A DNA stretch of 64,000 nt from a bacterium (GTDB lineage Bacteria; Bacillota; Clostridia; Lachnospirales; Lachnospiraceae), in NCBI GenBank assembly GCA_023664305.1, contig JAMPFT010000002.1, positions 62,001 to 126,000 on the forward strand, written 5' to 3'. The number at the start of each line of letters is the position of its first letter. Position 1 is the first letter of the stretch. The notes below the pieces were generated by a model that worked only from the letters and a program-made list of their open reading frames with translations, did not search any database and had not been told where the DNA came from. The position numbers were made by a program, and so were the translations under genes. Below, one piece after another: positions 3,281 through 48,483 of this stretch.

Positions 3281-3318
3281 AAAAGACGCACCGTCTCAGA
3301 CGGTGCGTCGCCTGTTTT
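3281..3318. terminator. Bidirectional intrinsic terminator
   Basis: A perfect 12-base-pair stem (GACGCACCGTCT, one-base C loop region, AGACGGTGCGTC; 3285-3309) is preceded by AAAA and followed by a TTTT-containing stretch. It can end transcription from the MocR gene on the plus strand and from the convergent small membrane-protein gene on the minus strand. Confidence 0.85.
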
Positions 3319-3324
3319 CGACTG

Positions 3325-3678: not shown

Positions 3679-3820
3679 AGTTTGCTCCTTTCGGTTGGTT
3701 GAATCTGCCAATTTTTATTTTAATACTATTCTGCTGAATTGAAAAGAGAATATGTATAATTTTACGAAAAATTTAGGAATTAATTCTTTTCAGAAAGTAC
3801 TGGGATTTTTATACGGAACC

Positions 3821-3830
3821 GTGCTATAAT
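3821..3830 (+). promoter_or_regulatory. Extended -10 promoter for the TetR-type gene
   Basis: TGCTATAAT is a perfect extended -10 element (TGnTATAAT) about 50 bases before the chosen ATG; no good -35 is seen. Transcription should begin near 3837, downstream of the GTG at 3833, which argues against that codon being the start of the TetR-type protein. Confidence 0.65.
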
Positions 3831-3880
3831 GGGTGTATTCCTGTCGAATGGCAGTTGAAGGAACGGTAGGAGCAATTGAT

Positions 3881-4498
3881 ATGAACGGTAAGTTCTTTGA
3901 TTTGAAAAAAGAAAAACAGGACAGAATGATCAATGCGGCGTTGAAGGTTTTTGCCCTTCAGGGATACCGCCATGCCAGTACGGACGATATTGTCCGGGAG
4001 GCGGCCATCAGCAAGGGTCTTTTGTTTCATTATTTTGAGAGCAAGATCGGGGTGTACAGCTTTGCCTATGATTACAGCGTCCGGTTTATCAGCCTGGAGC
4101 TGCGGTCTACGGTAAATCCGAAGGAGCGGGACCTTTTTGAGATCATGAAGCAGATGGAGTGCGCCCGTATGCATGCCATGCGCGGATACCCTTACATGCA
4201 GCAGTTCCTGAACCGGTCCGCCACGGAGGATGTCAACGAGGCGCTGCTGGCGGTGGAAGAGAAGAGAAGCCTGCTGGAGGAGATGTACCGGGGGATTAAC
4301 GCGCGGATCGATTATACGCTTTTGCCGGAAGGAGTGGACGGGGACAAGCTGCGCAAGATGCTTGATTTTACCGTTAAGGGACTGATGACGGAACGGTTCC
4401 AGAACGCTTCCTTCCAGCCGGAGATGCTCTACAGGGAGATCTGCGGCTATCTGGATATGATGAGACAGCTGGTGTATCGGCAGGAGGAAGGTGTGTAA
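3881..4498 (+). CDS. TetR/AcrR family transcriptional regulator
   Basis: A 205-residue regulator with an N-terminal TetR helix-turn-helix (RMINAALKVFALQGYRHAST, then DDIVREAAISKGLLFHYFES) and an all-helical ligand-binding C-terminal domain. The start is placed at the ATG of MNGKFFDLKKEKQ, which has GGTAGGAG upstream and lies downstream of the extended -10 box. TetR proteins normally repress neighbouring genes when their effector is absent, but no transporter or enzyme is adjacent here, so the target is unknown and autoregulation is possible. Its final codons and stop run into a large nested inverted-repeat element that occupies the gap to the next gene. Confidence 0.92.
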   Translation: MNGKFFDLKKEKQDRMINAALKVFALQGYRHASTDDIVREAAISKGLLFHYFESKIGVYSFAYDYSVRFISLELRSTVNPKERDLFEIMKQMECARMHAMRGYPYMQQFLNRSATEDVNEALLAVEEKRSLLEEMYRGINARIDYTLLPEGVDGDKLRKMLDFTVKGLMTERFQNASFQPEMLYREICGYLDMMRQLVYRQEEGV

Positions 4499-4660
4499 AG
4501 ATTTTCTAAGCGGCCTGCCGAACTGCGTTCGGCATAGTACGCCCGCTAAGAAAATCTAAGTTACACAAGTTGCTAAAGCAACTCGAAGAATGCCAAGAGG
4601 GGGCGCAGCCCACCTCTTTGAGCAGGCGTTCTTCCGGATTTGCACCAATTGTTTGTGTCA
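4492..4660. repeat. Stack of nested inverted repeats overlapping a stop codon
   Basis: Several stems are nested or adjacent: TGTGTAA (4492-4498) with TTACACA (4561-4567); AGATTTTCTAAGCGG with CCGCTAAGAAAATCT (one mismatch); GCCGAAC-TGC-GTTCGGC; AGTTGCT-AA-AGCAACT; GAAGAATGCC with GGCGTTCTTC enclosing CAAGAGG...CCTCTTTG; and ACACAA with TTGTGT at the right end. The left arm includes the stop codon of the TetR-type gene. There is no coding potential and no clear T-run. It resembles a mobile hairpin element or complex terminator. Confidence 0.7.
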
Positions 4661-4675
4661 CGCAGGGACGCTTTT

Positions 4676-5437
4676 TTAGCGGCTGGGACGGTAAGGGGAA
4701 TCCGCGGGATAGCCGCCCTTGAGTTTCTGCATACCGCGCTGGATGGCGTCCTTTGAGTTCTTCCAGTCGGCGTCGCGGTTGCGGTGGTCGAACTTTTCCA
4801 CCATCCAGGCCACGTCTTCAGAGAGTCTTTCCATATTTCGCTCCATGAGAGGCAGAAGAGAGCCGTAAAAATCTTCCTTTTCCCTGTCGTTTAATTTAGT
4901 GTCGGACGCCTCGCAGAGATCGCCGAAATGCGGCAGACAAAAGCCCTTGCTCTTTTTTACCTTTTCCACAAAATCGGGGTCCTGCTTCCAAAGGTAGAAA
5001 AAGGTATCCATATATCTTTCATAGGTATCCTTAAACTGGCCGCAGATATAGCAGGAAGCCTCTTTTTTCCGAACCCAGACGCCGATGGCATTACCGCTTT
5101 CGGCGCTTTTTTTAAACTTGTCCATCAGGGAGCTTCGCTGGGGCCTGAAGCCGGAAAATTCCTTTTTCATCTCCCCGATCATCCGGCGGTAATGGGTCTT
5201 TAAGATCCAGGCGTTCCCGAGAGTGTTCCCGTAGCTGAACATTTTCTGGTAATGGGCGCGGCAGAATCCTGCCTTGTCCGTCAGCTCACGGACGTCGGCT
5301 TCCATGTAGGAAGCGCTGCTCCCCAGCACAAAGTCCAGAAGATCCTGCTCGATACTGCGCTCGATATAGCAGAAAGGGCACTCATCGTCTGCGTTGACGG
5401 CATCGTTTAAAGGTATGGTATAAAGCTGTTCTTTCAT
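4676..5437 (-). CDS. DUF6062 family cysteine-rich protein
   Basis: A 253-residue soluble protein matching the DUF6062 pattern known from clostridia; function unknown. Two similar halves each carry Cys/His clusters: CPFC (about residues 20-23) with GFCRAHYQK, then CYIC with KGFCLPHFGDLCE. Such C-x-x-C plus C/H sets suggest metal or Fe-S binding, though this is not demonstrated. The rest is charged and helical. No signal peptide is visible. GAGGAG precedes the ATG at the right distance. It is convergent with the TetR-type gene and divergent from the MBOAT gene. Confidence 0.85.
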   Translation of the reverse strand: MKEQLYTIPLNDAVNADDECPFCYIERSIEQDLLDFVLGSSASYMEADVRELTDKAGFCRAHYQKMFSYGNTLGNAWILKTHYRRMIGEMKKEFSGFRPQRSSLMDKFKKSAESGNAIGVWVRKKEASCYICGQFKDTYERYMDTFFYLWKQDPDFVEKVKKSKGFCLPHFGDLCEASDTKLNDREKEDFYGSLLPLMERNMERLSEDVAWMVEKFDHRNRDADWKNSKDAIQRGMQKLKGGYPADSPYRPSR

Positions 5438-5581
5438 TTGGTTCTCCTCGCTTCCCGCGTGATAGATTGCGGCCTTTCTTTAAGGCACGAAATATCTCCG
5501 TATGTATTCAGTGTACCGCAAATATTATAAAAATGCTACCTGTTTGTAACAATTTGGAAAGTAAAATTAAGAAATCTTAAT

Positions 5582-5610
5582 TTGTCATACGGAGAACTTA
5601 CCGCTACTAT
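5582..5610 (+). promoter_or_regulatory. Probable promoter for the MBOAT-SGNH pair
   Basis: TTGTCA (5582-5587), a 17-base spacer and TACTAT (5605-5610) lie about 35 bases before the MBOAT start in an AT-rich gap. An overlapping TATAAT at 5610-5615 has no -35 at suitable spacing. Confidence 0.5.
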
Positions 5611-5644
5611 ATAATTATAGAAGTAACGAAAGATGGGATAATTT

Positions 5645-7039
5645 TTGATATTCAGCAGTATAGAATTTTTGTTTCGGTTCTTGCCGGCTTTTTTGATTCT
5701 TTATCGGCTCTCTCCCGACAGGATGAAAAACACGGTACTTCTTGCAGGAAGTCTCTTTTTCTATGGGATGGGCGACCCCGGGTATCTGGTGCTGTTGATG
5801 ATATCGGTGTTGGTAAATTACGGGATCGGGTTGAACCTCGCCGGCAGGAAAAAGGACAGGGACAGAAGAAAAGAACATAAGAAAAGTAAATACGAAAGAA
5901 AACGGAAACGGTTATTTGTGGCGGCGGTTGTCGGAAATGTCGGAGTGCTGCTCTTTTTCAAGGCGGCGGCAGAGAAGGTGGGCTTCCCGCTGGGAATCAG
6001 CTTTTATACCTTTCAGATTCTGTCCTATCTGATCGACGTGTACAGAGGAGAGCAGAAGAGGGAGACGTCCTTCGTGCGGCTGGCGACCTATGTGACCATG
6101 TTCCCGCAGTTGATTTCCGGCCCGATTGTCAGTTACCCGGAGGTGCGAAACGATCTGCACAGGCGGAGCTTTACGGCTCAGAATCTGCAGGAAGGTCTGA
6201 AGGTGTTTACCGTGGGACTGGCGGCAAAGGTGCTGTTGGCCGACCGATTGGGGATTTTGTGGCAGGAAGTACAGGTTACCGGGTTTGAGAGCATATCGAC
6301 GCCGTTGGCCTGGCTGGCCGCCTTTGCCTATTCGCTGAAGATTTATTTTGACTTTTACGGGTATTCTCTCATGGCGGTCGGTCTGGGACGTATTTTGGGC
6401 TTTGATCTCCCGGAGAATTTCAGGACGCCGTATATGGCGCGTTCCGTCAGAGATTTTTACCGCCGCTGGCATATCACGCTGGGAAGGTGGTTCTGCCGCT
6501 ATGTCTATATCCCGCTGGGCGGGAACAGAAAAGGGGAGTTCAGAACGGTGTGTAATCTTCTGGCGGTCTGGGGGCTGACGGCGGTATGGCACGGAAGCAC
6601 CGCGAACTTTCTGATCTGGGGTATGCTGCTGTGGCTTTTCATCGTGCTGGAAAGGCAGCTGGAAACGCCGCGCATGAAGCGGATATTCGAAAAGGGAGTC
6701 CTGCGGGCGGTCCCGCATCTGTACCTTTGGACCGTGATCCCCGTGACCTGGATCTGCTTTGCAATCACGGACGTGTCTCAGCTGCAGCTGTATCTGGGCA
6801 GGATGTTCGGTGTGCTGGAGGGCGTCAGGGTCAGTGCGGGAGACTGGCTGAGAGCGCTGGGGACTTACTGGTATCTGTTCGGAATCGGCGCGTTGGCGTG
6901 TACGCCGCTTTTGCAGAAGCTGTTTGAAAAGTGGAAGAACCGGTTTCTCGGAGTATTGGTTTTGACGGCGCTGTTCTGGCTTTGCGTCTGGCGTCTGCAG
7001 ACAGAAGGACAGAATCCTTTTATGTATTTTAGTTTCTGA
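5645..7039 (+). CDS. MBOAT-family O-acyltransferase (AlgI/DltB-like)
   Basis: A 464-residue polytopic membrane protein of the membrane-bound O-acyltransferase family, which passes acetyl groups across the membrane onto polysaccharides or other extracellular acceptors. The hallmark DFYRRWHITLGRWF places a conserved His at residue 276, and AVWHGSTANFLIWG holds the catalytic-type His316. The TTG start gives the typical opening IFSSIEFLFRFLP; no better start exists. A basic cytoplasmic loop (KKDRDRRKEHKKSKYERKRK) follows the second helix. The next gene encodes an SGNH hydrolase-like protein 22 bases later, the usual partner in AlgI/AlgJ-type acetylation systems. Confidence 0.92.
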   Translation: MIFSSIEFLFRFLPAFLILYRLSPDRMKNTVLLAGSLFFYGMGDPGYLVLLMISVLVNYGIGLNLAGRKKDRDRRKEHKKSKYERKRKRLFVAAVVGNVGVLLFFKAAAEKVGFPLGISFYTFQILSYLIDVYRGEQKRETSFVRLATYVTMFPQLISGPIVSYPEVRNDLHRRSFTAQNLQEGLKVFTVGLAAKVLLADRLGILWQEVQVTGFESISTPLAWLAAFAYSLKIYFDFYGYSLMAVGLGRILGFDLPENFRTPYMARSVRDFYRRWHITLGRWFCRYVYIPLGGNRKGEFRTVCNLLAVWGLTAVWHGSTANFLIWGMLLWLFIVLERQLETPRMKRIFEKGVLRAVPHLYLWTVIPVTWICFAITDVSQLQLYLGRMFGVLEGVRVSAGDWLRALGTYWYLFGIGALACTPLLQKLFEKWKNRFLGVLVLTALFWLCVWRLQTEGQNPFMYFSF

Positions 7040-7061
7040 GCCGGCGAAGGGCTCAAAAAGG

Positions 7062-8057
7062 GTGATTTGTTTGAAATTCTGGAAAAAATGGAATTATCTG
7101 ATATTAATGGCGGCGGTGGGACTTTTTTATCTTTGTTTTGTGGATCACTGGCAGATCTATGCGCAGACGTTGGAGCAGACAAGAGAGTTTTGCAGGGTCT
7201 TTTTTGACGGAGAGAGCGGCGACGTCCCGCCCGGGATGAGTGAAGAGAGCAGGGAAAAGGATCCGGAGCAGGGAGACGGAGGGGCGGCGGAGGAAGCGCC
7301 GTCTGAATCTCCGTCAGGCAGAGAAGATATCCGGCCGGAGCCGGACGGCGGGGAGCCTTCGGAGGCTTTGGAACCCTCGGAGTCGGACTCTGTGGAAGGG
7401 GCCGGTTCGGAGGAGACGCAGCCGGAGGAGGAAGCCGTGCGGATACCGGAGTTTGTGACGGTGGAGGACGACTATTTTGCCGACGCGGTGTTCATCGGAG
7501 ATTCCAGGACCGTCGGGATGTACGAGTACGGGGGACTGGAGGAAATTTCCACCTTCTACGCTTCCACGGGGCTGACGGTTTATAAGCTTTTTGATTCCGC
7601 GATCGTCAAGATACCGGGACAAAGGCAGAAGATTACGGTGGAAGAGGCGCTGCAAAACAATTCGTTTGCCAAGATTTATCTCATGATCGGGATCAACGAG
7701 ATGGGAACGGGAACGGTGGAAACCTTTATCAAAAAGTACGGCGAGGTTGTGGCGCATCTGCAGGAGCTGCAGCCGGACGCGGTCATCTATATCCAGGGAA
7801 TTATAAAAGTCACCGCGGAGCGCTCAAATCAGGGCGATTACATTAATAACGAGGGGATTGAAGCCCGCAACCTGGAGCTGGAAAAGCTGGCGGATAACGA
7901 AAAAATCTTTTATCTCGATGTGAATCCCCTGATCTGCGACGAGACGGGCGGAATCGTTGATTCCTACACCTTCGACGGAGTCCACCTGAAGGCGCGCTAC
8001 ATTGAAATCTGGAAGGATTATCTCAAGGAGCATGCGGTCTCCTTTACAGTAAAATAA
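7062..8057 (+). CDS. Membrane-anchored SGNH/GDSL hydrolase-like protein, probable acetylation partner
   Basis: A 331-residue protein with one N-terminal membrane helix (about residues 10-27), then a long acidic Glu/Pro/Ser-rich linker (about 50-130), then an SGNH domain outside the membrane. Family blocks are FIGDSRTVGM (block I, nucleophile Ser), IYLMIGINEMG (block III) and TFDGVHLKARY (block V, Asp-His pair). It likely finishes or edits O-acetylation begun by the upstream MBOAT protein, by analogy with alginate and peptidoglycan acetylation systems; the acceptor is not known. GTG at 7062 or TTG at 7071 could start it; ribosome-site spacing does not decide. Confidence 0.87.
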   Translation: MICLKFWKKWNYLILMAAVGLFYLCFVDHWQIYAQTLEQTREFCRVFFDGESGDVPPGMSEESREKDPEQGDGGAAEEAPSESPSGREDIRPEPDGGEPSEALEPSESDSVEGAGSEETQPEEEAVRIPEFVTVEDDYFADAVFIGDSRTVGMYEYGGLEEISTFYASTGLTVYKLFDSAIVKIPGQRQKITVEEALQNNSFAKIYLMIGINEMGTGTVETFIKKYGEVVAHLQELQPDAVIYIQGIIKVTAERSNQGDYINNEGIEARNLELEKLADNEKIFYLDVNPLICDETGGIVDSYTFDGVHLKARYIEIWKDYLKEHAVSFTVK

Positions 8058-37261: not shown

Positions 37262-37744
37262 ATGAAAACGATGGTAAAAATACTATTTGTCTGCCACGGC
37301 AACATCTGCCGCTCTCCCATGGCGGAATTTGTCATGAAAGATATAATTCAAAAAAACGGTCTTGAAGACCGGTTCTTCATCGCATCCGCGGCGACCAGCA
37401 CGGAAGAGATCTGGAACGGAGTCGGTAATCCGGTATATCCTCCCGCGAAGGCGGAGCTTGCCAGGCATGGGATTGGCTGTGAAGGAAAGAGGGCGGTGCA
37501 GCTGCAAAGATCGGATTACGAAAAATACGATTATTTCATTGGCATGGATAGTGCCAATATCCGCAATATGTACCGTATGCTGGGAGGAGACCCAGATCAA
37601 AAGATCTTTAAGCTGCTTTCCTTTGCGGGATCGGAGGCGGATATATCCGATCCCTGGTATACCGGGGAGTTTGGTGCGGCTTACCGGGATGTGGAGCGGG
37701 GATGTCGCGCTCTTTTGAAATTTCTGACGGAAGAAGGCGGCTGA
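37262..37744 (+). CDS. Low-molecular-weight protein tyrosine phosphatase
   Basis: A 160-residue phosphatase. The CX5R signature appears as VCHGNICRSPMAEF (nucleophile Cys near residue 11), and the general-acid Asp lies in ISDPWYTGEF. In Gram-positives such enzymes often dephosphorylate BY-kinases that control polysaccharide export, which fits the neighbouring glycan region, though no BY-kinase is visible here. Two ATGs 9 bases apart could start it: the first is only 2 bases after AAGGAG, the second (37271) is 11 bases after it. A degenerate copy of its 3' end follows about 87 bases downstream. Confidence 0.93.
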   Translation: MKTMVKILFVCHGNICRSPMAEFVMKDIIQKNGLEDRFFIASAATSTEEIWNGVGNPVYPPAKAELARHGIGCEGKRAVQLQRSDYEKYDYFIGMDSANIRNMYRMLGGDPDQKIFKLLSFAGSEADISDPWYTGEFGAAYRDVERGCRALLKFLTEEGG

Positions 37745-37972: not shown

Positions 37973-38548
37973 TTATATCAAATGAAAGCCTTTTCTCAAC
38001 AGTCCTTCGCAGATTTTTGCAATTTCTTCCGGCGGTTTCGGGCTGGGGTGGTTCAGCCAGGTTTCGATGACGCCGGTGCATCCGGAAACGATAAAGGATT
38101 CGATGTAGATAAGATCCTGTTCTTTTTGGGCCACTGTCAGGATACTGTAGAGGCGTTCCTGCACCAGCTTTTTCATTTTCTTCACAAAGGTCAGATCTCC
38201 GTGGGGGCCCATTGTCACTCTCGCAAATGCCTTGTGGCGTTCCAGAAAGGCAAATATTTCGTTTAAGGTGGTCTCTGACGAATCGGGTACGCAGGTGAGT
38301 GTGCGATCCAGAATCTCGTTAAATTCCAGAAAGAGTTCGTCTTCCATTTTCTCCAGCATATCGTAAATGTCGGTGTAATGCAGATAAAAGGTTCCGCGGT
38401 TGATATCTGCCAGATCGGACAGTTCTTTTACGGAGATATCCTTGACGTCCTTTGTCTCCATCAATTGTATCAGTCCCTGCTGCAGCAGGGAGCGTGTTCT
38501 GCGGACGCGTCGGTCGGTGCCGGCGCTTTTTTTCGTGTTTTCTGTCAT
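37973..38548 (-). CDS. TetR/AcrR family regulator, divergent from the MMPL transporter
   Basis: A 191-residue regulator. The DNA-binding region runs from RRTRSLLQQGLIQLMETKDV through ISVKELSDLADINRGTFYLH (recognition helix NRGTFYLHYTD). The C-terminal domain is of the type seen in clostridial TetR proteins near transporters (LTCVPDSSETTLNEIFAFLE, FIVSGCTGVIETWL). It is transcribed away from the MMPL/RND transporter across a 274-base gap that holds the transporter promoter and two dyads, so it most likely represses that transporter. A run of G residues (GGGGGG) precedes the ATG as the ribosome site. Confidence 0.92.
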   Translation of the reverse strand: MTENTKKSAGTDRRVRRTRSLLQQGLIQLMETKDVKDISVKELSDLADINRGTFYLHYTDIYDMLEKMEDELFLEFNEILDRTLTCVPDSSETTLNEIFAFLERHKAFARVTMGPHGDLTFVKKMKKLVQERLYSILTVAQKEQDLIYIESFIVSGCTGVIETWLNHPSPKPPEEIAKICEGLLRKGFHLI

Positions 38549-38659
38549 CTTTATCCCCCCTTTGGCATCAATTCAGTGTTTGGAGTTTCCTTCCAAACTT
38601 CTTCCTTTTTATCATAGACAGGCGTTCTCCGGCTGATTTCTAAAAAAAATGTAAATTGA

Positions 38660-38786
38660 TTGACACAAACCGCTAAAATGTCAAGAAATATACAGCTGCG
38701 CGGAAAGTGTGCATTGCCTTTTAAATCAGTTTTATTATAATAGCCTTTAAAAAGAAAATCAACACATGTTTAGTAAAAGACATGGT
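38660..38786 (+). promoter_or_regulatory. Transporter promoter and candidate TetR operators
   Basis: TTGCCT (38714-38719), a 16-base spacer and TATAAT (38736-38741) form a promoter for the MMPL gene. A dyad TTGACA...TGTCAA (38660-38684) lies upstream. An imperfect dyad, AACACATGTTT...AAAAGACATGGTT (38759-38786), lies just after the predicted transcript start, a good place for a repressor. Which dyad the TetR protein binds cannot be told from sequence. Confidence 0.55.
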
Positions 38787-38822
38787 TGCTAATAAAACAG
38801 AATGGCGAAAGGAGAGTAAATT

Positions 38823-41378
38823 ATGGCGAGGGAAAACGGGAAGAAGGATGAGTCCTTTATGATCAGGCTGTCTACCTTGATCGTGGATAAACGGAAGGGC
38901 TTTTATCTGATCTTTATCATGTTGATTTTGTTCAGTGTGGCTTCCATGGATAAGGTAAGGGTGAATAATGATCTGACGTCTTATCTGCCGGGCACCACGG
39001 AAACCAGGATCGGTCTGGATTTGATGGAGGAGCAGTTTATTACATATGGCACGGCAAGGGTCATGGTGTGTAATGTGACGCTGGAGGAAGCGCAGAATAT
39101 TGCGGAGCGTTTGGAGGAATTGGAAGGAGTCAGTATGCTGACCTTTGATGATTCCGCGGAGCATTATCACGATATGGAGGCGTTGTTTGATATTACCTTT
39201 GCCGGGGAGGCAGAGGAGGCGGTGTCGCAGGAGTATCTGAACGGAGTGCTGGAGGAATTAAAAGGGTACGATACTTATTATTCCTCGGACATCGGCCAGG
39301 AGGAGAGGGATGCGGACGACCTGAACCGGGATATGATTCTGATCCTGATTTTGGCGGGAGTTGTGATCGTGGCGGTGCTGTTGTTCACGTCCACTACCTA
39401 CGCGGAAATCCCGGTGTTTCTGATAACGTTTATCGTGGCGGCTATCCTGAATAAAGGAAGTAATTTTATCTTCGGTACAATCAGCTTTGTCACGGATTCC
39501 ATTGCGGTAGTGCTGCAGCTGGCTTTGGCAGTGGATTACGCGATCATTCTCTGTCATCGCTTTATGGAGGAGCATGAGGATAAGGATGCCAGGGAGGCGG
39601 TGATCGTGGCGTTAAGCAAGGCGATACCGGAGATTTCGTCCAGCTCTCTGACCACGGTTTCCGGCATGGTAGCCATGATGTTCATGCAGTTTCGGATCGG
39701 CTATGACATGGGAATCGTCCTGGCGAAGGCAATCGTGCTCAGTCTGGTGTCCGTTTTCTTCCTGATGCCCGGGCTGCTTCTGACCTTTGCCGGGGCGATT
39801 GACAATTCCCATCACAGAAGCTTCGTTCCGAAGATCACGGCAGTGGGAAGGTTTTGTGTGGCCACCAGATTTTTTGTGCCGCCGATCTTTGTGGCGGTTG
39901 TGATTGTGGCGGCGGTGATTTCGGGCAAGACGAATTATGTGTACGATGTAAATGCTCTGGAAGCGAAGAAAATGAGTGACAATAAGTTTTCCCAGGCTAT
40001 GGTGAACCGGGAATTTGGGACGGTGAACCAGCTGGCGGTCATGGTTCCGAACGGCGATTATGAGCGGGAGGGAGAGGCTTTGAGAGCGCTGGAGTCTATG
40101 GAGGAGGTAAACTCCTGCATGGGGCTGGCAAATATAGAGGCCATGGACGGTTATCTGCTGACGGAGCAGCTTTCGCCAAGAGAGTTTGCCGAGCTGATCG
40201 ATATGGATATCGAGGTGGCGGATCTGCTTTATTCCGCCTATGCGGTGGATCACAGCAATTACGGGGCGTTGTTGAACGGCATAAATGAATACAGGGTTCC
40301 GCTGATCGACATGTTCCTCTTTATTTACAATCAGAAGGAGGCGGGAAACATTACGCTGGATGACGGCCTGGAGGAGACTCTGACGGAGGCCTATTCCCGG
40401 ATCAGTATTGCGAAAGATCAGCTGTCAGGGGAGAGCTACAGTCGTTTCGTACTGGATCTCTCCGTCCCGGCGGAAGGAGAGACGACTTATGCGGCGCTTC
40501 AAAAGATCAGAGATACTGTGGCGAGGTATTACAATTACGATGACATTGTCCTTGCGGGAAATTCCACCAGCAATCAGGATCTGAGTGATTCCTTCGGCAC
40601 GGACAACACGATCATTACGGTGCTCACCGCGTTGTTCGTCATGATCATCCTGTTGTTTACGTTCCAGTCTGCAGGCTTGCCGGTGCTGTTGGTGCTTTCC
40701 ATCCAGGGAAGCATCTGGATGAACTTTTCCCTGCCTTATCTTACGGGGGAGTCAGTGTATTTTCTGGGATATCTGGTGGTATCCGCCATCCAGATGGGCG
40801 CTACCATTGATTACGCGATTGTGATTACCAGCCGCTACATGGAGCTGAAGACCTATATGCCGATCAAGGAGGCTATTGTGGAGACCCTGAATCAGGCGTT
40901 TCCTACCATTGTGACCAGCGGTTCCATGCTGGTGGCCGCGGGCTTTATTATCAGCAATACCTCTTCCAATGCCGTTGTGGCAGCGATCGGACTGGCGCTG
41001 GGCCGGGGGACACTGACGTCTATTCTTTTGGTGCTGCTGGTGCTTCCGCAGACGCTGCTCATGGGAGATATCATCATAGAAAAGACAGCGTTCACGCTGA
41101 AGCGGGAGACGGTAAAGCCTTTGCCGGCGGGAGGAAGGATCCGTATGTCGGGGCATATCAGGGGTTATGTGAACGGCGTGATAGACGGAGAGTTCAGCGG
41201 TGTGATAGACGGAGAGATGGGGGCCGTCGTCCGTGTACGGGACGAGGTGGAAGATATTGACCAAAATAGTCAAACAATGAACGGGGAGGTGTCGCAGACG
41301 GATGCGGTCAACGAAACTGACACAAAAAGCGACACAGAAGCACAGGCGCGGGAGGTGGCGGAAAATGAGGAAAAATAA
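38823..41378 (+). CDS. MMPL/RND-superfamily transporter
   Basis: An 851-residue protein with the two-fold RND design: helix 1, a large extracellular loop, helices 2-6, then the same again. Examples are VNNDLTSYLPGTTETRIGL after helix 1, ALAVDYAIILCHRFMEEHED and MGATIDYAIVITSRYMELK. Asp in DYAI within the helix-4 equivalents is the usual proton-relay residue. MMPL-type proteins of Gram-positives export lipids, fatty acids or peptides using proton flow. The cytoplasmic tail holds a small internal repeat (NGVIDGEFSGVIDGEMG). The next gene overlaps its last 14 bases, so the two proteins should work together. Confidence 0.9.
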   Translation: MARENGKKDESFMIRLSTLIVDKRKGFYLIFIMLILFSVASMDKVRVNNDLTSYLPGTTETRIGLDLMEEQFITYGTARVMVCNVTLEEAQNIAERLEELEGVSMLTFDDSAEHYHDMEALFDITFAGEAEEAVSQEYLNGVLEELKGYDTYYSSDIGQEERDADDLNRDMILILILAGVVIVAVLLFTSTTYAEIPVFLITFIVAAILNKGSNFIFGTISFVTDSIAVVLQLALAVDYAIILCHRFMEEHEDKDAREAVIVALSKAIPEISSSSLTTVSGMVAMMFMQFRIGYDMGIVLAKAIVLSLVSVFFLMPGLLLTFAGAIDNSHHRSFVPKITAVGRFCVATRFFVPPIFVAVVIVAAVISGKTNYVYDVNALEAKKMSDNKFSQAMVNREFGTVNQLAVMVPNGDYEREGEALRALESMEEVNSCMGLANIEAMDGYLLTEQLSPREFAELIDMDIEVADLLYSAYAVDHSNYGALLNGINEYRVPLIDMFLFIYNQKEAGNITLDDGLEETLTEAYSRISIAKDQLSGESYSRFVLDLSVPAEGETTYAALQKIRDTVARYYNYDDIVLAGNSTSNQDLSDSFGTDNTIITVLTALFVMIILLFTFQSAGLPVLLVLSIQGSIWMNFSLPYLTGESVYFLGYLVVSAIQMGATIDYAIVITSRYMELKTYMPIKEAIVETLNQAFPTIVTSGSMLVAAGFIISNTSSNAVVAAIGLALGRGTLTSILLVLLVLPQTLLMGDIIIEKTAFTLKRETVKPLPAGGRIRMSGHIRGYVNGVIDGEFSGVIDGEMGAVVRVRDEVEDIDQNSQTMNGEVSQTDAVNETDTKSDTEAQAREVAENEEK

Positions 41379-44334
41379 AAATATTATGACAATTATGTCG
41401 TTTATCCTGTGCGGGACGCTGCTGATCTTTGGACAGTTGAATGTGTCAGCGGCGGAAAGCGGGAAGACCTATGAGGATTATCTTGCGGGGACAGGGCAGG
41501 AGCTGGCGGAGAGCGAGTATATCCGGATCCGCATCTCGTCGGAAGAGGATCTGGCAAAGCTGGCCGAGGACTGTGAGCTGGACTCCTGGTCCACGGATAA
41601 ATATGTCATACTGGATCAGGACATTGTGCTGGAGAAATACCGGGATTTGACGATTCCGGGCTTTGGGGGAATCTTTGACGGCTGCGGCCACCGGATTGCC
41701 AATCTGGAGACAGAAGCGTACGGTTCTTCCGTAGGGTTGTTCCGCTCTGTGCGCGAGGGAGGCGTCGTCCGCAATCTCCGGGTCTCGGGAAGGGTGCATC
41801 CCCAGGGCAGCCGGAGCAATGTGGGAATTTTGGCCGGTGTTAATTATGGAGAAATCGTCAACTGCAGCGCGGCAGGGAGCGTGACGGGCGAGGAGGCGGT
41901 AGGCGGCCTTGTGGGGACGAATCAGGCGTCGGGGGAGATCCGCAGGTGCAGCGCAGCGGTTCTGGTGGCGGGCGACCGATGTGTGGGCGGTATCTGCGGC
42001 GTCAACTACGGAACGCTGAATAACTGCTCCAATGACGGAAAGATCAATGCCTACAGCAGGGAAACGACTTACAGTCTGGATGACATCACCGCGGAAAACC
42101 TGGAGAATCTGAACGATATGGGGAATGTGGGCGCTCATACGGATACGGGCGGAATTGCAGGATATTCGGAGGGAAAGATTTATTACTGCACCAATACGGG
42201 CACCGTAGGGTATCAGCATGTAGGGTATAATACGGGCGGAATCGTGGGCAGACTGCATCAGGGGTATCTGCAGAGCTGTACCAACAGCGGCGAAGTGTAC
42301 GGCAGAAAGGATGTAGGAGGAATCGCGGGTCAGATGGAGCCCTTTCTGGAGATCCTTTATTTAAACGATAAGCTGAGCGAGATAGACCGGGAGACGGGGA
42401 AGCTGCTCGATCTTCTGGATGCGGCTCATGAGGATTTGAGCGGCTACGGCAAACAGGCCTCGAATCTGGCGAAGTCGCTGACGGATCATCTGGGGAATGT
42501 GTCTGACGCGGCGAATTATCTGAGTAATACTGCGGTGGAACTCTGGTATGTCTACAATCAGGAGCTGACGGGAGCCGGTGACGATCTGAAACGGCTGAAC
42601 ACGGAGCTGGAAAACACAGGCGGCACTACGGAGTATACGGTCAGCGGCGGGGATGCGGGAGACATTACCGTTAAGGTTCCCGACGATTATGACAGCTATA
42701 AGGCGGCGCTTCGGCGTTTCGGCGACAGCGCGGGCGCGCGTGTGGACAATGTCACGAAAGCAACCTCCGACAGAAGCGGCGGGATTACCGGCAGCCTGGA
42801 ATTTCTGAATCGGGAGATGAGCGATGCGGCAGACGATCTGCAGCAGCTTTCGGATGTTTTGCTCAAGGAGACGGATCAGACCGGAGAGGATGTGGACGCC
42901 GTGGCGGAGCAGATAAGAATTTTGCGGAAATCCGTCAACGAATTGAGGGACGATCTGTTCCGGTATGAAGGGATTACGGTGGAGGATACCTCCGATGAAG
43001 CGGCGGGAACAGAACCGGTCGAACCCGGGGCCGGGCAGGAGGTATATTATGATACCGCCTCTTTCCAGAAGGGAAAGATCACTCTGTGTGTCAACAAAGG
43101 AAATGTGACGGCGGATACCGCTGTGGGAGGAATCGTGGGGCAGGTGGCGACGGAGTATGATTTTGACCCGGAGGACGATATCACCCTCAGCGGAGAAGAA
43201 AGCTTTCACATCGAACAGACGGTGAAAGCCATCGTGCGGGAAAGCGTCAATTTCGGCGTGATTACGGGCAAGAAGGATTATGTGGGAGGCGTGGTCGGCA
43301 AGGCGGATTTCGGCGCCGTCATTTCCTGCGAGTCCTACGGCGATGTGTCCAGCGCGGGCGGCAGCTATGTGGGAGGCATTGCGGGATCTTCCGGTTATGC
43401 CGTTCGAAGCTGTTCCTTTTTGGGAAGTCTGAGCGGGAAAAATTATGTGGGCGGTATCGCAGGCAGAGGGTGTGATATCTTTTACTGTTACGCTTATCCG
43501 GACTTGCAGCTGGAAGGAGAATGCGGCGGTTCTGTCGCGGGACAGGCAGACGAAGAGGGCATCCTGACGGGGAATTATTATGTGAAGGGATGCATGGCCG
43601 GGGTGGACTCTGTGGGATATGACGGCGGGGCCACACCGGTGGAATACGGGGAGCTTTGCAGTATGGACGGGGTGCCGGAGGCCTTTCGGGAATTTACGGT
43701 GATCTTCAGGGCAGACGGGAAGGAGCTGGCTGTTTTTACCTGTAAATACGGGGATTCTCTGGAGGAAGCGCAGATTCCGCAGGTGCCGGAGAAGGAAGGC
43801 TGTTACGGCTTCTGGCCGGAATCCGGCGACGGAACGGTCAGGAAAAACCTGATTATCGATGCGCAGTATCAGCCCTGGATTTCCGCATTGGCGGGAGCGG
43901 ATAAGGATGAAAGCGGAAAGGCGCTCGTCCTGGCGCAGGGAAATTTCAGACCGGGCGCGGAGCTCGTTCTGACGCAGGAGGAAGAAGGACAGCGGCTGGA
44001 GGTGGTATACCGGGAGGAGACGGGCCGGGTGACGGAAAAGTATTCGGAGCCGCTTGCGGTGCGGATCCTCTGTGAGGATGCGGAGCACACGGCGGTGGAG
44101 GTGTACGACGGCGGCAGCTGGGTACAGACACAGACCTCGGTGACAGGCAGTTATGTGGGATTTGTCCTGCCGGTCTCCGGGATTTACAGGGTGACAATTC
44201 TGCAGGACGGCAGTAAAATAAAACTGATCGGCATTGCAGCCGGAGGCGGCGCGGCCGTGGCGGCAGCGCTGTTCGCGGCAAAGCGTTCGAAGCGCCGCCG
44301 CAGAAAAGACTCTTCGAAAGACACAGATATTTAA
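41365..44334 (+). CDS. Large secreted GLUG-repeat protein with C-terminal membrane anchor
   Basis: A 989-residue cell-surface protein. A signal peptide (to about VSAAES) is followed by a region of GLUG repeats, the pattern GGI(V/C)G..xG.I..C...G.V.G, seen as GGLVGTNQASGEIRRC, GGICGVNYGTLNNC, GGIAGYSEGKIYYC and GGIVGRLHQGYLQSC. A long helical coiled segment follows (about residues 330-550), then further GLUG units, a beta domain, one membrane helix (IAAGGGAAVAAALFAAK) and a basic end (KRSKRRRRKD). GLUG repeats are known from surface proteins such as M26 peptidases. The start is fixed by GGGAGGTGG. It overlaps the transporter gene, so it may be its extracellular partner. Confidence 0.85.
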   Translation: MRKNKNIMTIMSFILCGTLLIFGQLNVSAAESGKTYEDYLAGTGQELAESEYIRIRISSEEDLAKLAEDCELDSWSTDKYVILDQDIVLEKYRDLTIPGFGGIFDGCGHRIANLETEAYGSSVGLFRSVREGGVVRNLRVSGRVHPQGSRSNVGILAGVNYGEIVNCSAAGSVTGEEAVGGLVGTNQASGEIRRCSAAVLVAGDRCVGGICGVNYGTLNNCSNDGKINAYSRETTYSLDDITAENLENLNDMGNVGAHTDTGGIAGYSEGKIYYCTNTGTVGYQHVGYNTGGIVGRLHQGYLQSCTNSGEVYGRKDVGGIAGQMEPFLEILYLNDKLSEIDRETGKLLDLLDAAHEDLSGYGKQASNLAKSLTDHLGNVSDAANYLSNTAVELWYVYNQELTGAGDDLKRLNTELENTGGTTEYTVSGGDAGDITVKVPDDYDSYKAALRRFGDSAGARVDNVTKATSDRSGGITGSLEFLNREMSDAADDLQQLSDVLLKETDQTGEDVDAVAEQIRILRKSVNELRDDLFRYEGITVEDTSDEAAGTEPVEPGAGQEVYYDTASFQKGKITLCVNKGNVTADTAVGGIVGQVATEYDFDPEDDITLSGEESFHIEQTVKAIVRESVNFGVITGKKDYVGGVVGKADFGAVISCESYGDVSSAGGSYVGGIAGSSGYAVRSCSFLGSLSGKNYVGGIAGRGCDIFYCYAYPDLQLEGECGGSVAGQADEEGILTGNYYVKGCMAGVDSVGYDGGATPVEYGELCSMDGVPEAFREFTVIFRADGKELAVFTCKYGDSLEEAQIPQVPEKEGCYGFWPESGDGTVRKNLIIDAQYQPWISALAGADKDESGKALVLAQGNFRPGAELVLTQEEEGQRLEVVYREETGRVTEKYSEPLAVRILCEDAEHTAVEVYDGGSWVQTQTSVTGSYVGFVLPVSGIYRVTILQDGSKIKLIGIAAGGGAAVAAALFAAKRSKRRRRKDSSKDTDI

Positions 44335-44471
44335 ATTTTTTGCCAACAAAAACAGCGTTCTGGTTACTCTATCAGGGAAGCGGCAGTTTTACCGTGACAA
44401 AAAGCCGGTCCGGAAACGGTTTTGCGTGGGTAAAACGCCGCAGATTTCAAGAGGAAAGCGAGGCGAAGAGC

Positions 44472-46379
44472 TTGACGGAGAAGGAAGAGCTGCTGCAGAC
44501 GCTGGAAAAGGAGCTGCTGCCTAAAATATACGGCTTCTGCGTCCTGAAAATGAATACGCAGCAGGAGGCCGAGGACCTGTCGCAGGAAATCTGCACGGAG
44601 GTTTTGAAGGCGATCCGCAGCGGCAAAAGGATTGAGAATCTGAACGCTTTTGTGTGGAGTGTGTCAAATCATATGTTCTACAATTATCTGCGCAGGAAAA
44701 GGCACGGCGCGGATGTATATCTTTCCGAACTGCTTTCGGCGCGGGACGACCCGGAGGAGGAGTGTATCCTAAAGGAACAGAAGTCGCTTCTGCGCAGGGA
44801 GCTGGCTCTGATGACCGGCGATTACAGGAAGGCCGTTATCATGCATTATTTTGACGAGCTCTCCTGCGAGGAGATCGGCGCGGCGCTGGGAAAAAGCCCC
44901 GGCACCGTCAGATGGTGGCTTCACGACGCGAGAAAGACAATCGGGAAAGGAATGAACACAGTGAGGGAATTTGGAGAAAAGAGCTTTCATCCGGGCGCGC
45001 TGAACGTGTCCTGCCAGGGAATGCCGGGAGACCGGTTTGAACCCATGAGCTGCGTGACGAGAAAGTCCACGCAGAACATATTGCTGGCGGCGTACAAGGC
45101 CCCGGTTACGGTGGGCGAGCTTTGCACGGAGTTGGGGATCGCCGCCCCTTATGTGGAGGACGAGCTGGAGTATCTGACGGAAAATCAGCTAATGCGGGAG
45201 GTATCCAGGGGAAGGTATCAGACGGATTTTGTGATTCTGCCGTGGGACAGCGCGGAGACTGCGGACAAAATCCGGGAGGCGCTTTTCCCGGCCTATTATG
45301 AGAAGCTGATCCGTTTCCTGGAGGAAAGAAAGGAAATTTTGACGGAAGGCAGATTCAACACCGCCGGGTTTTCCTGGGAAAGGCTGCTCTGGGTTTATCT
45401 GTTTATCATCACGGACAGGGCGGCCGCCAGATACAAGGTTCTCCACGGAGTCGGCATAAGAGGACGGGAAATGCCGCTGCGCCCCAGGGGCGGGCAGTGG
45501 GTGGCTCTGGGCTTTGACGGCAGCGCCGGCGCGGGAAATGAGGGGACGGCAGCAACGAAGAGCAGGGAGACCTCCCGCTTTGACGGCAGCGCCGGCACGG
45601 GAAATGCGGGGACGGCAGCAACGAAGAGCAGGGAGACCTCCCGCTTTGACGGCAGTGCCGACGCGGGAAATGTCGGGGAGGGGAAGGCGTACTACGAGTA
45701 CAACGGCCCCTTATACGGAGTGGGGCAGGAAACCTGCGCCGTATGTCTGATTCACGGCTGGAGCCGCTGCGGGGCGGAGGAATTTTTAGAGATTCCCGGA
45801 GAGGTTTTTGCGCTGTGCGGGCGGGTGGCGGAAGGAAAGCTTAAGATAGGAGAGCTGGAGGGAGAGGAGAAGTATCTGTTCAGCGTCGCCCTGGAGAGGA
45901 AGCTGTTTGTGGAAACGGTGGATGGTTTTTCGCAGAATTTCTTTTATGTGGCGGGAGAGGAGCATGACGCGATCGAGAGGATGGCGCAGGATTTTTACGA
46001 GGAGACGGCGGAGTTTTACGAAAAGGCCTACGATATCATCCTGCGGCAGTATGTAAAATCCATACCGCCCCATCTGTACTGGCAGATGGATTGCATTCTC
46101 TCTTTTAAGCTGAACTATCTGATTACCTGCTCCCTGGACGAAGGGCTTAAGCGGGGAAACCTGTGTGAGCCAGACGAAAATGCAGGAAAGTGGCTAAGTC
46201 TCTATGTGAGCGGAAACGAACGGAACGCGGCAGGAGAGGACACCGCCAGCCAGACTCGGTCGGAAGCAAGGGAACCCGAGCAGGGCGCGGCAGGAAAAAA
46301 GACCGTCAGCCAGCGCGAACCGGAAGCAGGGGAACCTAAGCAGGTCGCGCGCGCTGCGGGAAAGGAGGCGCAGGTATGA
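44472..46379 (+). CDS. ECF-type sigma factor with long winged-helix C-terminal extension
   Basis: Sigma regions 2 and 4 occupy about the first 175 residues: FCVLKMNTQQEAEDLSQEIC with NAFVWSVSNHMFYNYLRRK, then HYFDELSCEEIGAALGKSPG. Beyond this are about 460 extra residues. A winged-helix-like domain (LLAAYKAPVTVGELCTELGI, then YVEDELEYLTENQLM) comes first, then a helical region holding a 24-residue in-frame tandem repeat (FDGSAG...GTAATKSRETSR), and a Glu/Ala-rich repetitive end. The start is uncertain: the frame is open from 44340, but TTG at 44472 precedes the sigma domain with GCGAGG upstream. The stop overlaps the ABC gene (ATGA). Confidence 0.8.
   Translation: MTEKEELLQTLEKELLPKIYGFCVLKMNTQQEAEDLSQEICTEVLKAIRSGKRIENLNAFVWSVSNHMFYNYLRRKRHGADVYLSELLSARDDPEEECILKEQKSLLRRELALMTGDYRKAVIMHYFDELSCEEIGAALGKSPGTVRWWLHDARKTIGKGMNTVREFGEKSFHPGALNVSCQGMPGDRFEPMSCVTRKSTQNILLAAYKAPVTVGELCTELGIAAPYVEDELEYLTENQLMREVSRGRYQTDFVILPWDSAETADKIREALFPAYYEKLIRFLEERKEILTEGRFNTAGFSWERLLWVYLFIITDRAAARYKVLHGVGIRGREMPLRPRGGQWVALGFDGSAGAGNEGTAATKSRETSRFDGSAGTGNAGTAATKSRETSRFDGSADAGNVGEGKAYYEYNGPLYGVGQETCAVCLIHGWSRCGAEEFLEIPGEVFALCGRVAEGKLKIGELEGEEKYLFSVALERKLFVETVDGFSQNFFYVAGEEHDAIERMAQDFYEETAEFYEKAYDIILRQYVKSIPPHLYWQMDCILSFKLNYLITCSLDEGLKRGNLCEPDENAGKWLSLYVSGNERNAAGEDTASQTRSEAREPEQGAAGKKTVSQREPEAGEPKQVARAAGKEAQV
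45511..45670 (+). repeat. In-frame 72-base minisatellite in the ECF sigma gene
   Basis: The unit encoding FDGSAGxGNxGTAATKSRETSR plus flanking residues occurs twice in full and a third time in part (FDGSADAGNVGEG). The copies are nearly identical in DNA, indicating recent tandem duplication. Unit length is a multiple of three, so copy number can change without frameshift. Confidence 0.85.
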
Positions 46380-48163
46380 TTCCGGGGAAGATAAAGCGCA
46401 GACTGGGGTACTGTGTACAGATGTTCCGTGTGCTTTGGAACACGGACAGGGCGTTTCTGTTTTTCATTCTGGCGGACGTGCTGCTGGGGGCGATGCAGCC
46501 CTTCCCGCTGCTCTTTCTCGCCAGGGAGTCCGTGGATATTCTGACGGATCCGGCCCGCTCCTTCCGGGAGTTGATCCTGGTGACGGCGGCGCTTCTGGCG
46601 GCGGATTTCGTGATCGGTATTCTGGAGAATCAGGTGCAATATGTGACTTCTGTGAAGGGAAATCTGATCGGAAACAAGATGAACGAAAAAATTTTCCGAA
46701 AATGCATCGAGATGGACTATGAGCTTCTGGCGCGAAAGGATATTCAGGAGAAGCGGAGTTTGGCGAAAAAAACGGTGGAGGGCGGAAGCTTCAATAATCT
46801 GATCCGCAATTTCAGAACTCTGGCGGCGGGGCTTCTGACGCTGGCGGGAATCGCCGTGACCGTAGCGGCTGCGGACATCTGGATTTTGCTGGCGACGGCG
46901 GTTGTCATCGGAGTGAACACCGCCGCCGTATACAGGCGCAAGGAGGCGGAATACGAAGGGTTCCGCGCGGCGATTCCGGTAAACCGGAAGATCGACTATT
47001 ACGACACGGTCAGCTCTGACTTTTCCTATATGAAGGAAATCAAGGTCTTTCACATGGGAGAGGCCCTGATTGCGAGACAGGCCGGGCTTCTGCAGGAGAT
47101 CAGCGCCTTTTTGCGGAAGGTTTTTGCCGGGTGGACGGTTACCAACGGAATCGGCATCCTCACCAATACGGTTCTGCAGGCGCTTTTGTACCTTTTGCTG
47201 GGCTTTAAGCTGATGGTGCGGAGGGCGATCACCGTGGGGGACTTTACCCTGTACCTGACGGCGGTTCTGCAGTTTAAGACGGCGCTGACCAATATCGGCG
47301 CGGCCTTTGCTGACCTGGACCAGAACGGGCAGTATCTGGGGGATTATTTTGAATTTATGAATCTGGCGAACCGTTTCGATCAGGGGAACATGCCGCTGGC
47401 GGAGGCGGCGGGCGAAGATTTCGTCATCACCTTCGAGGATGTTTCCTTCCGCTATCCCTTTACGGAGGTGTATGCCCTGCGGCATATCAACTGCACCGTG
47501 CGGAAGGGAGAGAGGATCTGCGTGGTAGGGGAAAACGGCTCCGGCAAGACCACGTTTATCAAGCTTCTGATGCGTCTGTACGATCCCACGGAGGGCGTGA
47601 TCCGCCTGAACGGCGTCGATATCAAAAATTTGCGCTATTCGGAATATCTGGACTTTTTCTCCGCGGCGTTCCAGGATTTCAAGACCTTTGCCTGCACGAT
47701 CCGGGAAAATGTGGCGGCTCTGCAGGAGGCGGAGGAGGGCGAGGTGCGCCGGGCGGTGGAGCGGATCGGTCTGGGGGAGAAGGTGCGCAGCCTGGAGAAA
47801 GGGCTGGATACCTACCTGTACCGGATCTACGATGAAAACGGTGTGGAGCTTTCCGGCGGCGAGGCACAGCGGCTGGCCATTGCCAGAGCCATGTGCAAAA
47901 AGGCGCGGGTGATGGTGCTGGACGAACCCACGGCGGCCATCGACCCGAAGGTGGAGGCGGAGATTTTTCAAAATTTCGATGAGATTGCCAGGGACACGAC
48001 CTCTGTCTGCACCACCCACAGGCTGGCTGGAGCCAGAAGCGCGTCGAAAATTCTGGTGTTTTCCGCGTCGAGGCTGATCGAAACCGGAAGTCATCAGGAG
48101 CTGCTGGAGGCGGAAGGAACCTACGCGCGGCTGTATCGGATGCAGGCGCAGCTGTATCTGTAG
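46376..48163 (+). CDS. ABC exporter, fused membrane and ATPase domains
   Basis: A 595-residue half-transporter. Six membrane helices span about residues 1-310, and the nucleotide-binding domain follows with Walker A GENGSGKTT, Q-loop AFQDFKTF, signature LSGGEAQRLAIARAM, Walker B VMVLDEPTAAID and H-loop TTHR. It probably works as a homodimer exporting a lipid or peptide. The ATG lies in the overlapping stop of the ECF sigma gene, with AAAGGAGG in that gene's last codons, so the regulator and exporter are translationally coupled. Degenerate repeats of its 3' end follow. Confidence 0.93.
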   Translation: MIPGKIKRRLGYCVQMFRVLWNTDRAFLFFILADVLLGAMQPFPLLFLARESVDILTDPARSFRELILVTAALLAADFVIGILENQVQYVTSVKGNLIGNKMNEKIFRKCIEMDYELLARKDIQEKRSLAKKTVEGGSFNNLIRNFRTLAAGLLTLAGIAVTVAAADIWILLATAVVIGVNTAAVYRRKEAEYEGFRAAIPVNRKIDYYDTVSSDFSYMKEIKVFHMGEALIARQAGLLQEISAFLRKVFAGWTVTNGIGILTNTVLQALLYLLLGFKLMVRRAITVGDFTLYLTAVLQFKTALTNIGAAFADLDQNGQYLGDYFEFMNLANRFDQGNMPLAEAAGEDFVITFEDVSFRYPFTEVYALRHINCTVRKGERICVVGENGSGKTTFIKLLMRLYDPTEGVIRLNGVDIKNLRYSEYLDFFSAAFQDFKTFACTIRENVAALQEAEEGEVRRAVERIGLGEKVRSLEKGLDTYLYRIYDENGVELSGGEAQRLAIARAMCKKARVMVLDEPTAAIDPKVEAEIFQNFDEIARDTTSVCTTHRLAGARSASKILVFSASRLIETGSHQELLEAEGTYARLYRMQAQLYL

Positions 48164-48389: not shown

Positions 48390-48483
48390 CGGCAGAATTT
48401 TGCGAAGCAGAAATTCTACCCGGCAGAATTTTGCGAAGCAGAAATTCTACCCGGCAGAATTTTTGCGAAGCAGAAATTCTACC
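48390..48483 (+). repeat. 31-bp tandem repeat, three copies, each a GCGAAGC hairpin
   Basis: The unit CGGCAGAATTTTGCGAAGCA plus GAAATTCTACC occurs three times head to tail; the third has one extra T. Each unit folds as GAATTT-(T)-GCGAAGC-(AG)-AAATTC. There are no spacers between copies. It lies in the gap between the ABC exporter and the phosphate butyryltransferase gene. Confidence 0.9.

What the first reader, a model, noticed from the sequence alone, without database searches (positions are those of the whole stretch)
37973..44334. TetR-MMPL-GLUG surface system
A TetR repressor is divergent from an MMPL transporter whose gene overlaps that of a 989-residue, membrane-anchored GLUG-repeat protein. 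Overlap suggests a stoichiometric complex. RND pumps in Gram-positives lack the classical adaptor and outer channel, so a large extracellular GLUG/coiled-coil partner could be a cell-wall-spanning conduit or a receptor for the exported lipid. I know of no described system of this make-up.
Basis: inference. Interest (0 to 1): 0.7.

Follow-up and report, generated by a model that had tools for sequence, protein, structure and literature searches.

The report
Gut-bacteria export pump with surface partner
Many gut Clostridia carry a membrane export pump whose gene is locked together with, and sometimes fused to, the gene of a large surface protein that probably helps carry the pump's cargo outward; such paired pumps seem undescribed in these thick-walled bacteria.

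Summary
In detail: a TetR gene is divergent from an MMPL (RND-type) transporter gene that overlaps, by 14 bp, the gene of a 989-residue secreted, C-terminally membrane-anchored GLUG protein. The pair is a conserved unit. Among 298 genomes of the window's family, the 43 with this MMPL subfamily are exactly the 43 with a strong GLUG match. Of 169 loci read, 155 have the genes side by side, 9 in one frame, 5 are cut by a contig end. Single-chain fusions arose about three times. The GLUG protein is a solenoid interrupted by a two-armed coiled coil; the window's transporter has none. In mycobacterial MmpL5 and MmpL10 such a coil sits inside the pump. Other MMPLs of this family have other secreted coiled-coil neighbours in 20 of 21 regions, one cut short. 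Best reading: one envelope exporter whose coiled-coil extension is supplied in trans. A physical complex is well supported genetically; conduit and substrate are inferred. Ten literature searches found no description.

The parts
37973..38548 (-). TetR-family regulator, 191 aa (TetR_C_8), divergent from the pump
   Evidence: TetR neighbour in 87 of 139 loci with upstream DNA
38549..38822 (.). Divergent intergenic region: promoter-like TTGCCT-16-TATAAT (38714-38741, +) and an imperfect inverted repeat 38650-38665/38679-38694; the stretch around the TATAAT and the following ATCAAC is conserved in an alignment of 10 related loci. Operator function inferred. The small extra gene seen here in 28 other loci is absent from the window.
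   Evidence: promoter-like sites in the scanned region: 7, against 5.2 with sd 2.5 in shuffles
38823..41378 (+). MMPL/RND transporter, 851 aa, MMPL profile matched in two stretches
   Evidence: D238-Y239 in 140 of 143 and D663-Y664 in 143 of 143 aligned members
39945..40592 (+). Second outside loop of the MMPL (residues 375-590, 216 aa); no heptad run; median 216 residues against 136 in 21 other MMPLs
41133..41231 (+). Cytoplasmic tail of the MMPL with h-x-G-x repeats (residues 771-803), bactofilin-like in appearance
   Evidence: pattern in 117 of 137 GLUG-linked MMPLs (fused ones left out), 0 of 21 other MMPLs, 0.05 of 137 in shuffled tails; Pfam Bactofilin only below cut-off in 2 of 10 tails
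41365..41378 (+). 14-bp overlap of the two genes
   Evidence: overlap in 123 of 138 two-gene pairs with a start chosen by a rule that favours starts near the MMPL stop
41365..44334 (+). GLUG partner protein, 989 aa, signal-peptide-like N-terminus, ectodomain, one C-terminal TM, basic tail
41527..42342 (+). First GLUG segment, presumed beta-solenoid (residues 55-326)
   Evidence: profile A3 weakly matches the GLUG region of solved IgA1 proteases (7uvl E 1.2e-4, 6xjb E 3.6e-4)
42343..43092 (+). Inserted coiled-coil segment (residues 327-576), heptad runs at 329-406 and 467-535 with a non-heptad stretch between
43093..43584 (+). Second GLUG segment (residues 577-740) with the acidic motif EYDFDPEDD at 597-605 (43153-43179), 8 of 9 positions invariant in the 61-row alignment A1 but its pattern not found in most of the more distant relatives
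44218..44283 (+). C-terminal transmembrane segment (residues 952-973) followed by a run of basic residues

Best explanation
The MMPL and the GLUG protein are two subunits of one envelope exporter of Clostridia. SHOWN by sequence: they occur together, mostly overlap, co-diverge and have been fused about three times; the pump keeps both Asp-Tyr pairs; the partner looks secreted and anchored at its C-terminus and is built of GLUG segment - two-armed coiled coil - GLUG segment. INFERRED: the MMPL uses the proton gradient to lift a hydrophobic, probably lipid-like, molecule out of the membrane; the GLUG solenoid docks on the outside loops of the pump; the coiled-coil hairpin projects into the wall and does, in trans, what the built-in coiled coil of MmpL5/MmpL10 does in cis (oligomerise the pump and extend its path outward). 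The divergent TetR probably represses the operon until a substrate-like ligand appears. Other MMPLs of the same bacterial family use other secreted coiled-coil partners in the same gene position.
For: MMPL directly upstream in 77 of 80 GLUG-seeded loci, the other 3 begin at a contig end. The same 43 genomes of 298 hold both. In 393 class-level genomes 48 hold the MMPL; GLUG rang at E <= 1e-25 in 36 of them and in no other genome, and reading the remaining 12 showed a more distant GLUG protein next door in all 12. Three further genomes outside the class also have the pair, one cut by its contig end. GLUG-linked MMPLs fall on one side of a branch against 21 other MMPLs (FastTree support 1.0); the fused state needs three changes on the MMPL tree. 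Distances correlate, r = 0.87 over 135 pairs, permutation maximum 0.09. Coiled coil: pooled hydrophobic periodicity peaks at 3.5 and each of 142 inserts exceeds its own shuffles and its own N-terminal GLUG segment; no heptad run in the window MMPL's loops. In 5 of 6 complete fusions a hydrophobic segment is seen at the junction, which fits a cytoplasmic MMPL C-terminus leading outward. Precedent: MmpL5 has a 196-aa coiled-coil insertion needed for function and modelled as a 13-nm tube (PMC12501195, passages); MmpL10's coiled coil drives oligomerisation (PMC12183618, abstract).
Against: No structure or interface could be predicted. No substrate evidence: in the loci compared the only recurrent neighbours besides TetR are a small unnamed protein in 28 of 169 loci and, among close relatives, a few genes shared by 6 loci. 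At support 0.95, 10 of 77 MMPL splits conflict with supported GLUG splits, so some swapping or tree error exists. In one fusion (L157) no hydrophobic segment passes the threshold at the junction. Insert length varies from 184 to 729 residues, odd for a fixed tube. 52 of 139 loci lack a detectable TetR. For the other MMPL partners the heptad measure of 6 of 21 neighbours (L231's own among them) does not exceed the highest of 53 control genes. Co-occurrence is also explained by a receptor or assembly role.
Confidence: 0.55

Rival explanations
1. The GLUG protein is a surface receptor, display platform or acceptor that takes the exported lipid or glycopolymer from the pump and fixes it in the wall; the coiled coil is only a spacer of variable length.
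For: Variable insert length 184-729; the GLUG segment resembles that of surface IgA1 proteases; one subgroup (L019, L024, L040, L067, and L039 in part) carries an extra TM and a beta-rich tail domain.
Against: The best conserved features are solenoid glycines and motifs next to the coil; no binding domain was recognised. In 20 of 21 regions other MMPLs have partners without GLUG matches that share secretion and a coiled coil (the neighbour in L281 is cut short).
Confidence: 0.22
2. The GLUG protein is an assembly or oligomerisation factor of the pump, MmpS-like, without any part in the substrate path.
For: MmpS5 is reported as required for MmpL5 trimerisation and activity (PMC12501195, passages); the coiled coil drives oligomerisation of MmpL10 (PMC12183618, abstract).
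Against: A ~1000-residue ectodomain is large for this role (inference).
Confidence: 0.18
3. Two unrelated functions in one operon: the GLUG protein is an adhesin or wall sensor merely co-expressed with an efflux pump.
For: Free-standing GLUG repeat proteins are common: 45 of 298 genomes have only weak GLUG matches and no MMPL of this subfamily.
Against: Exact co-occurrence, about three fusions, one branch of linked MMPLs.
Confidence: 0.05

Closest known systems
Mycobacterial MmpS5-MmpL5 (and MmpL4, MmpL10)
   Same: MMPL/RND pump; a coiled coil outside the membrane; partner gene in the operon; closest solved relatives of the MMPL (9u51, MmpL5, E 4.8e-10)
   Different: There the coiled coil is inserted in the pump's second loop and MmpS5 has one TM and an Ig-like domain; here the window's pump has no coil and a ~1000-residue GLUG protein carries it
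~700-aa MMPL + secreted coiled-coil protein of the same bacterial family, e.g. L231 in the same genome
   Same: Same gene order, a TetR in 17 of 21 regions, secreted-looking partner with coiled coil, overlapping in 7 of 21. TIGR03057 heptads in 4 of 5 partners scanned (L231, L266, L268, L280; not L262)
   Different: Partners have no GLUG match; the window GLUG protein has no TIGR03057 match; the MMPLs lie on the other side of a supported branch, with a shorter second loop (median 136 vs 216) and no repeat tail
Gram-negative RND-adaptor-outer channel pumps (AcrAB-TolC type)
   Same: RND pump with a partner that has helical hairpins (recalled)
   Different: No adaptor or channel family was matched in the pair
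IgA1 proteases of streptococci (M26, name recalled)
   Same: GLUG segment weakly alignable
   Different: No HExxH in 142 of 143 GLUG partners (one sequence matches the pattern) and no LPxTG in their last 80 residues

Membership tests
MMPL family (Pfam PF03176), RND superfamily | Profile match above cut-off | tested here: met
   122.1 bits against cut-off 20.5, two stretches
MMPL family (Pfam PF03176), RND superfamily | Asp-Tyr pairs in TM4 and TM10 (proton path; recalled from MmpL3 work) | tested here: met
   140 of 143 and 143 of 143 members
MMPL family (Pfam PF03176), RND superfamily | Oligomeric state, proton-driven transport | not testable with these tools
   needs biochemistry
HAE3 transporters (TIGR00921) and actII MMPLs (TIGR00833) | Score above curated cut-off | tested here: not met
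   116.5 vs 351.9 and 105 vs 874.7 bits
MmpL5/10-type pumps with built-in coiled coil | Coiled coil in an outside loop of the pump | tested here: not met
   no heptad run in either loop of the window MMPL
MMPL + xxxLxxG partner systems | TIGR03057 repeats in the partner | tested here: not met
   no match of the window GLUG protein at E <= 1; L231 partner E 2.4e-23
GLUG-motif proteins (PF07581) | Glug repeats above cut-off | tested here: met
   54.6 bits against 20.5
M26 IgA1 proteases | HExxH zinc motif (recalled) | tested here: not met
   absent in 142 of 143 partners
Bactofilin (MMPL tail) | PF04519 above cut-off | tested here: inconclusive
   15.1 and 14.6 bits in 2 of 10 tails, cut-off 27.9; bactofilin chain 6ria only at E 1.3

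The most novel reading that the evidence does not exclude
Gram-positive Clostridia have a general class of two-component, wall-penetrating RND machines in which the coiled-coil conduit is a separate secreted protein, and evolution has used several scaffolds unrelated at the level tested (GLUG solenoid, xxxLxxG proteins, and a third type in L278/L279 with neither match) to dock it on the pump; the GLUG form is the most tightly locked of these, to the point of fusion.
Probability: 0.4. Interest if true: 0.8.

Novelty: new variant of a known kind. Interest (0 to 1): 0.62.

Why it matters
How RND pumps of one-membrane, thick-walled bacteria move bulky hydrophobic cargo beyond the membrane is open, because they lack the adaptor and outer channel. 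A near-obligate large partner, with natural single-chain versions of pump plus partner, gives ready-made constructs for structure work and a clear gene to remove. The pair is in 43 of 298 sampled genomes of the window's family (14%), many of the named relatives are gut bacteria, and the cargo could be a surface molecule or a defence against host or dietary compounds (inference).

Tried and rejected
Profile A1 against solved structures listed, in the 60 best of 1376 matches, long coiled coils because of the insert; the first GLUG segment alone (A3) gave the IgA1-protease match. A weak MCE-family hit of the insert (E 0.0024, far below cut-off) was taken as generic coiled coil; the same model also matches other partners weakly. 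The C-terminal tail of L067 and kin looked lipid-carrier-like (LolA/LppX, by eye, recalled), but no library or solved structure supports that; a search for it found 0 of 98 genomes, which says little because no genome known to hold it was in that draw. Insert borders sought by motif caught only 16 of 143 and 76 of 137 proteins; borders were then taken from the profile alignment (142 of 143; L155 dropped because nothing aligned between the border columns). L026 and L078 share a frame only in part of a disrupted MMPL and were not counted as complete fusions. Residue-level co-evolution was not attempted: 135 pairs are too few. A paper on a GLUG protein in a metagenomic clone active on NF-kB (PMC8480279, passages) has no occurrence of MMPL or RND.
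Full report
OBSERVATION. The window (G000:C22:62001-126000) holds a TetR gene (37973-38548, -), an MMPL gene (38823-41378, +) and a GLUG gene (41365-44334, +) as described. TetR_C_8, MMPL and Glug score well above their Pfam cut-offs; no NCBIfam model reaches E 0.001 on the GLUG protein, and none of the four listed for the MMPL reaches its curated cut-off.

CONSERVATION OF THE PAIR. A scan of named prokaryote genomes with the GLUG protein kept 80 of 85 relatives. In 77 an MMPL homologue (mostly 46-88% identical over the best segment) lies directly upstream on the same strand; the other three start at a contig end. Two searches over the same 298 genomes of the family gave 43 with the MMPL at E <= 1e-100 and 88 with any GLUG match; the 43 strong GLUG genomes (E < 1e-50, a cut set after seeing the gap) are exactly the 43 MMPL genomes, and the other 45 have weak matches only (best 3.8e-19). 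At class level 48 of 393 genomes have the MMPL and 36 of these, and no other, a GLUG match at E <= 1e-25. The 12 left over were read directly: all have a more divergent GLUG protein next to the MMPL (of the two copies in G554 one ends with its contig). At phylum level 5 of 299 have the MMPL; the three outside the class also have the pair, one cut by its contig end. In total 169 loci were read with profile models: 155 side by side, 9 with both in one frame, 2 MMPLs and 3 GLUG genes cut by a contig end; some loci are duplicates. In 138 two-gene pairs with a chosen start, 123 overlap the MMPL stop (the start rule favours this).

FUSIONS. In L017 and L018 (named Lachnoclostridium MAGs), G361, G461 and G477 (one genus code), and G631, MMPL and GLUG form one open frame of 1916-2041 codons; G526, of the same genus code as G361, shows the same on two contigs with a shared end. 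On the MMPL tree the six complete ones need three changes of state: L017/L018 sit among the window's close relatives (sister support 0.71), L156-L158 beside L214-L223 (1.0), L159 in another clade (1.0). A hydrophobic segment at the junction passes the scan in 5 of 6, not in L157.

CO-DIVERGENCE. MMPL and GLUG distances correlate at r = 0.87 over 135 pairs (permutation maximum 0.09). At support 0.95, 56 splits are shared of 77 MMPL and 84 GLUG splits, and 10 MMPL splits conflict. The nearest relative is the same for both proteins in 53% of pairs. So the pair mostly travels as a unit, with exceptions or tree error. Two other members of the window's genus have MMPLs 50% identical to it while a Roseburia MAG has 88%, which suggests horizontal movement; not tested further.

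ANATOMY. The transporter keeps D238-Y239 (140 of 143) and D663-Y664 (143 of 143). The outside loops of the window protein show no heptad run. Its cytoplasmic tail carries h-x-G-x repeats in 117 of 137 unfused members and 0 of 21 other MMPLs, bactofilin-like by eye but below threshold; the repeat is present in the L017/L018 fusions and not seen at the junction of L156-L159 and L161. The GLUG protein has two GLUG segments; the first aligns weakly with IgA1 proteases of known structure. Between them lies a segment of 184-729 residues (250 in the window): pooled hydrophobic periodicity peaks at 3.5, each of 142 exceeds its shuffles (L155 dropped), and Gly plus Pro make 8% against 19% in the N-terminal part. 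In the window the heptad runs are 329-406 and 467-535, as expected of a hairpin; at 0.15 nm per residue each arm would be about 10-12 nm (inference).

ACCESSORY GENES. TetR is beside the pair in 87 of 139 loci. A small protein of about 100-130 aa is encoded just before the MMPL, same strand, in 28 of 169 loci, not in the window; it has no NCBIfam match in the two scanned and one sub-threshold Pfam match (DUF4873, 20.3 bits, cut-off 25) in one of four scanned.

COMPARISON INSIDE THE FAMILY. The same genome holds another MMPL (L231) followed at once by a secreted-looking TIGR03057 heptad protein. Of 21 such regions (20 fetched plus L231), 18 have a homologue of that partner downstream (L281's is cut short), two (L278, L279) a different secreted-looking coiled-coil protein without Glug or TIGR03057 match, and L271 none. 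TIGR03057 itself matched 4 of 5 partners scanned. By the heptad measure 15 of 21 neighbours exceed the highest of 53 control genes and 6 do not (L231, L270, L271, L274, L276, L281). The GLUG-linked MMPLs lie on one side of a branch with support 1.0.

MECHANISM. MmpL5 carries a 196-residue coiled coil in its second periplasmic domain; deletion abolishes function and models show a 13-nm tube (PMC12501195, passages); in MmpL10 the coil drives oligomerisation (PMC12183618, abstract). The simplest reading is that the GLUG protein brings this element in trans. Complex formation is strongly suggested by genetics; conduit, proton coupling and substrate are inferred. Rivals (receptor, assembly factor, unrelated co-expression) are given with tests.

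LITERATURE. Ten full-text searches of the open library listed no paper that describes an MMPL-GLUG pair or an MMPL with a secreted xxxLxxG partner, judged from titles, abstract starts and hit counts; several searches listed only part of their hits (for example 10 of 50, 12 of 1397). Passages of two papers and one abstract were seen. Most subscription papers and preprints are not held, so absence is provisional.

VERDICT. A real, widespread, undescribed (as far as searched) pump-partner unit. It belongs to the MMPL family by the tests made, but not to the type with a built-in coiled coil nor to the NCBIfam subfamilies tested. Interest 0.62.

Noticed in passing
L231 (G000:C33:57500-70500), 2987-7464: Second MMPL system of the same genome: MMPL followed at once by a 769-aa secreted-looking xxxLxxG heptad protein, with a DUF308 membrane protein and a TetR upstream.
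   Followed up: yes
L019:3131-3454, L024:2254-2580, L043:3163-3552 and others (28 of 169 loci): A small unnamed protein (about 100-130 aa) encoded between TetR and MMPL on the pump's strand, often touching the MMPL gene; a possible third component in a subset, absent from the window.
   Followed up: partly
L067:9325-10605 and L019, L024, L040 (L039 partly): A subgroup of GLUG partners has a second TM and a beta-rich, seemingly duplicated tail domain with no family match; it looks lipid-carrier-like by eye.
   Followed up: partly
41133-41231: Glycine-hydrophobic tetrad repeat in the cytoplasmic tail of the GLUG-linked MMPLs, absent from 21 other MMPLs; kept in the L017/L018 fusions, not seen at the junction of L156-L159 and L161.
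   Followed up: partly
44340-46379: Sigma-70-like factor with a C-terminal extension of roughly 470 aa that contains a 66-bp in-frame tandem repeat (45511-45672), overlapping an ABC transporter gene (46376-48163).
   Followed up: no
37262-37744: Low-molecular-weight phosphotyrosine phosphatase upstream of the TetR; its cluster has members in 6 of the 82 regions compared, the window included.
   Followed up: no
48390-48483: 31-bp tandem array, 3 copies, 98% matches.
   Followed up: no
L009 (JAMPHU010000008.1): Record labelled Gastranaerophilales holds a pair whose MMPL is 78% identical to the window's; probably a mislabelled or mixed MAG.
   Followed up: no
L278:6602-8725 and L279:6483-8810 (G036): MMPLs of 751 and 823 aa followed by a third type of secreted-looking coiled-coil partner without Glug or TIGR03057 match; L278's matches Pfam DUF6674 just above cut-off (32.9 vs 28.5 bits).
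   Followed up: partly
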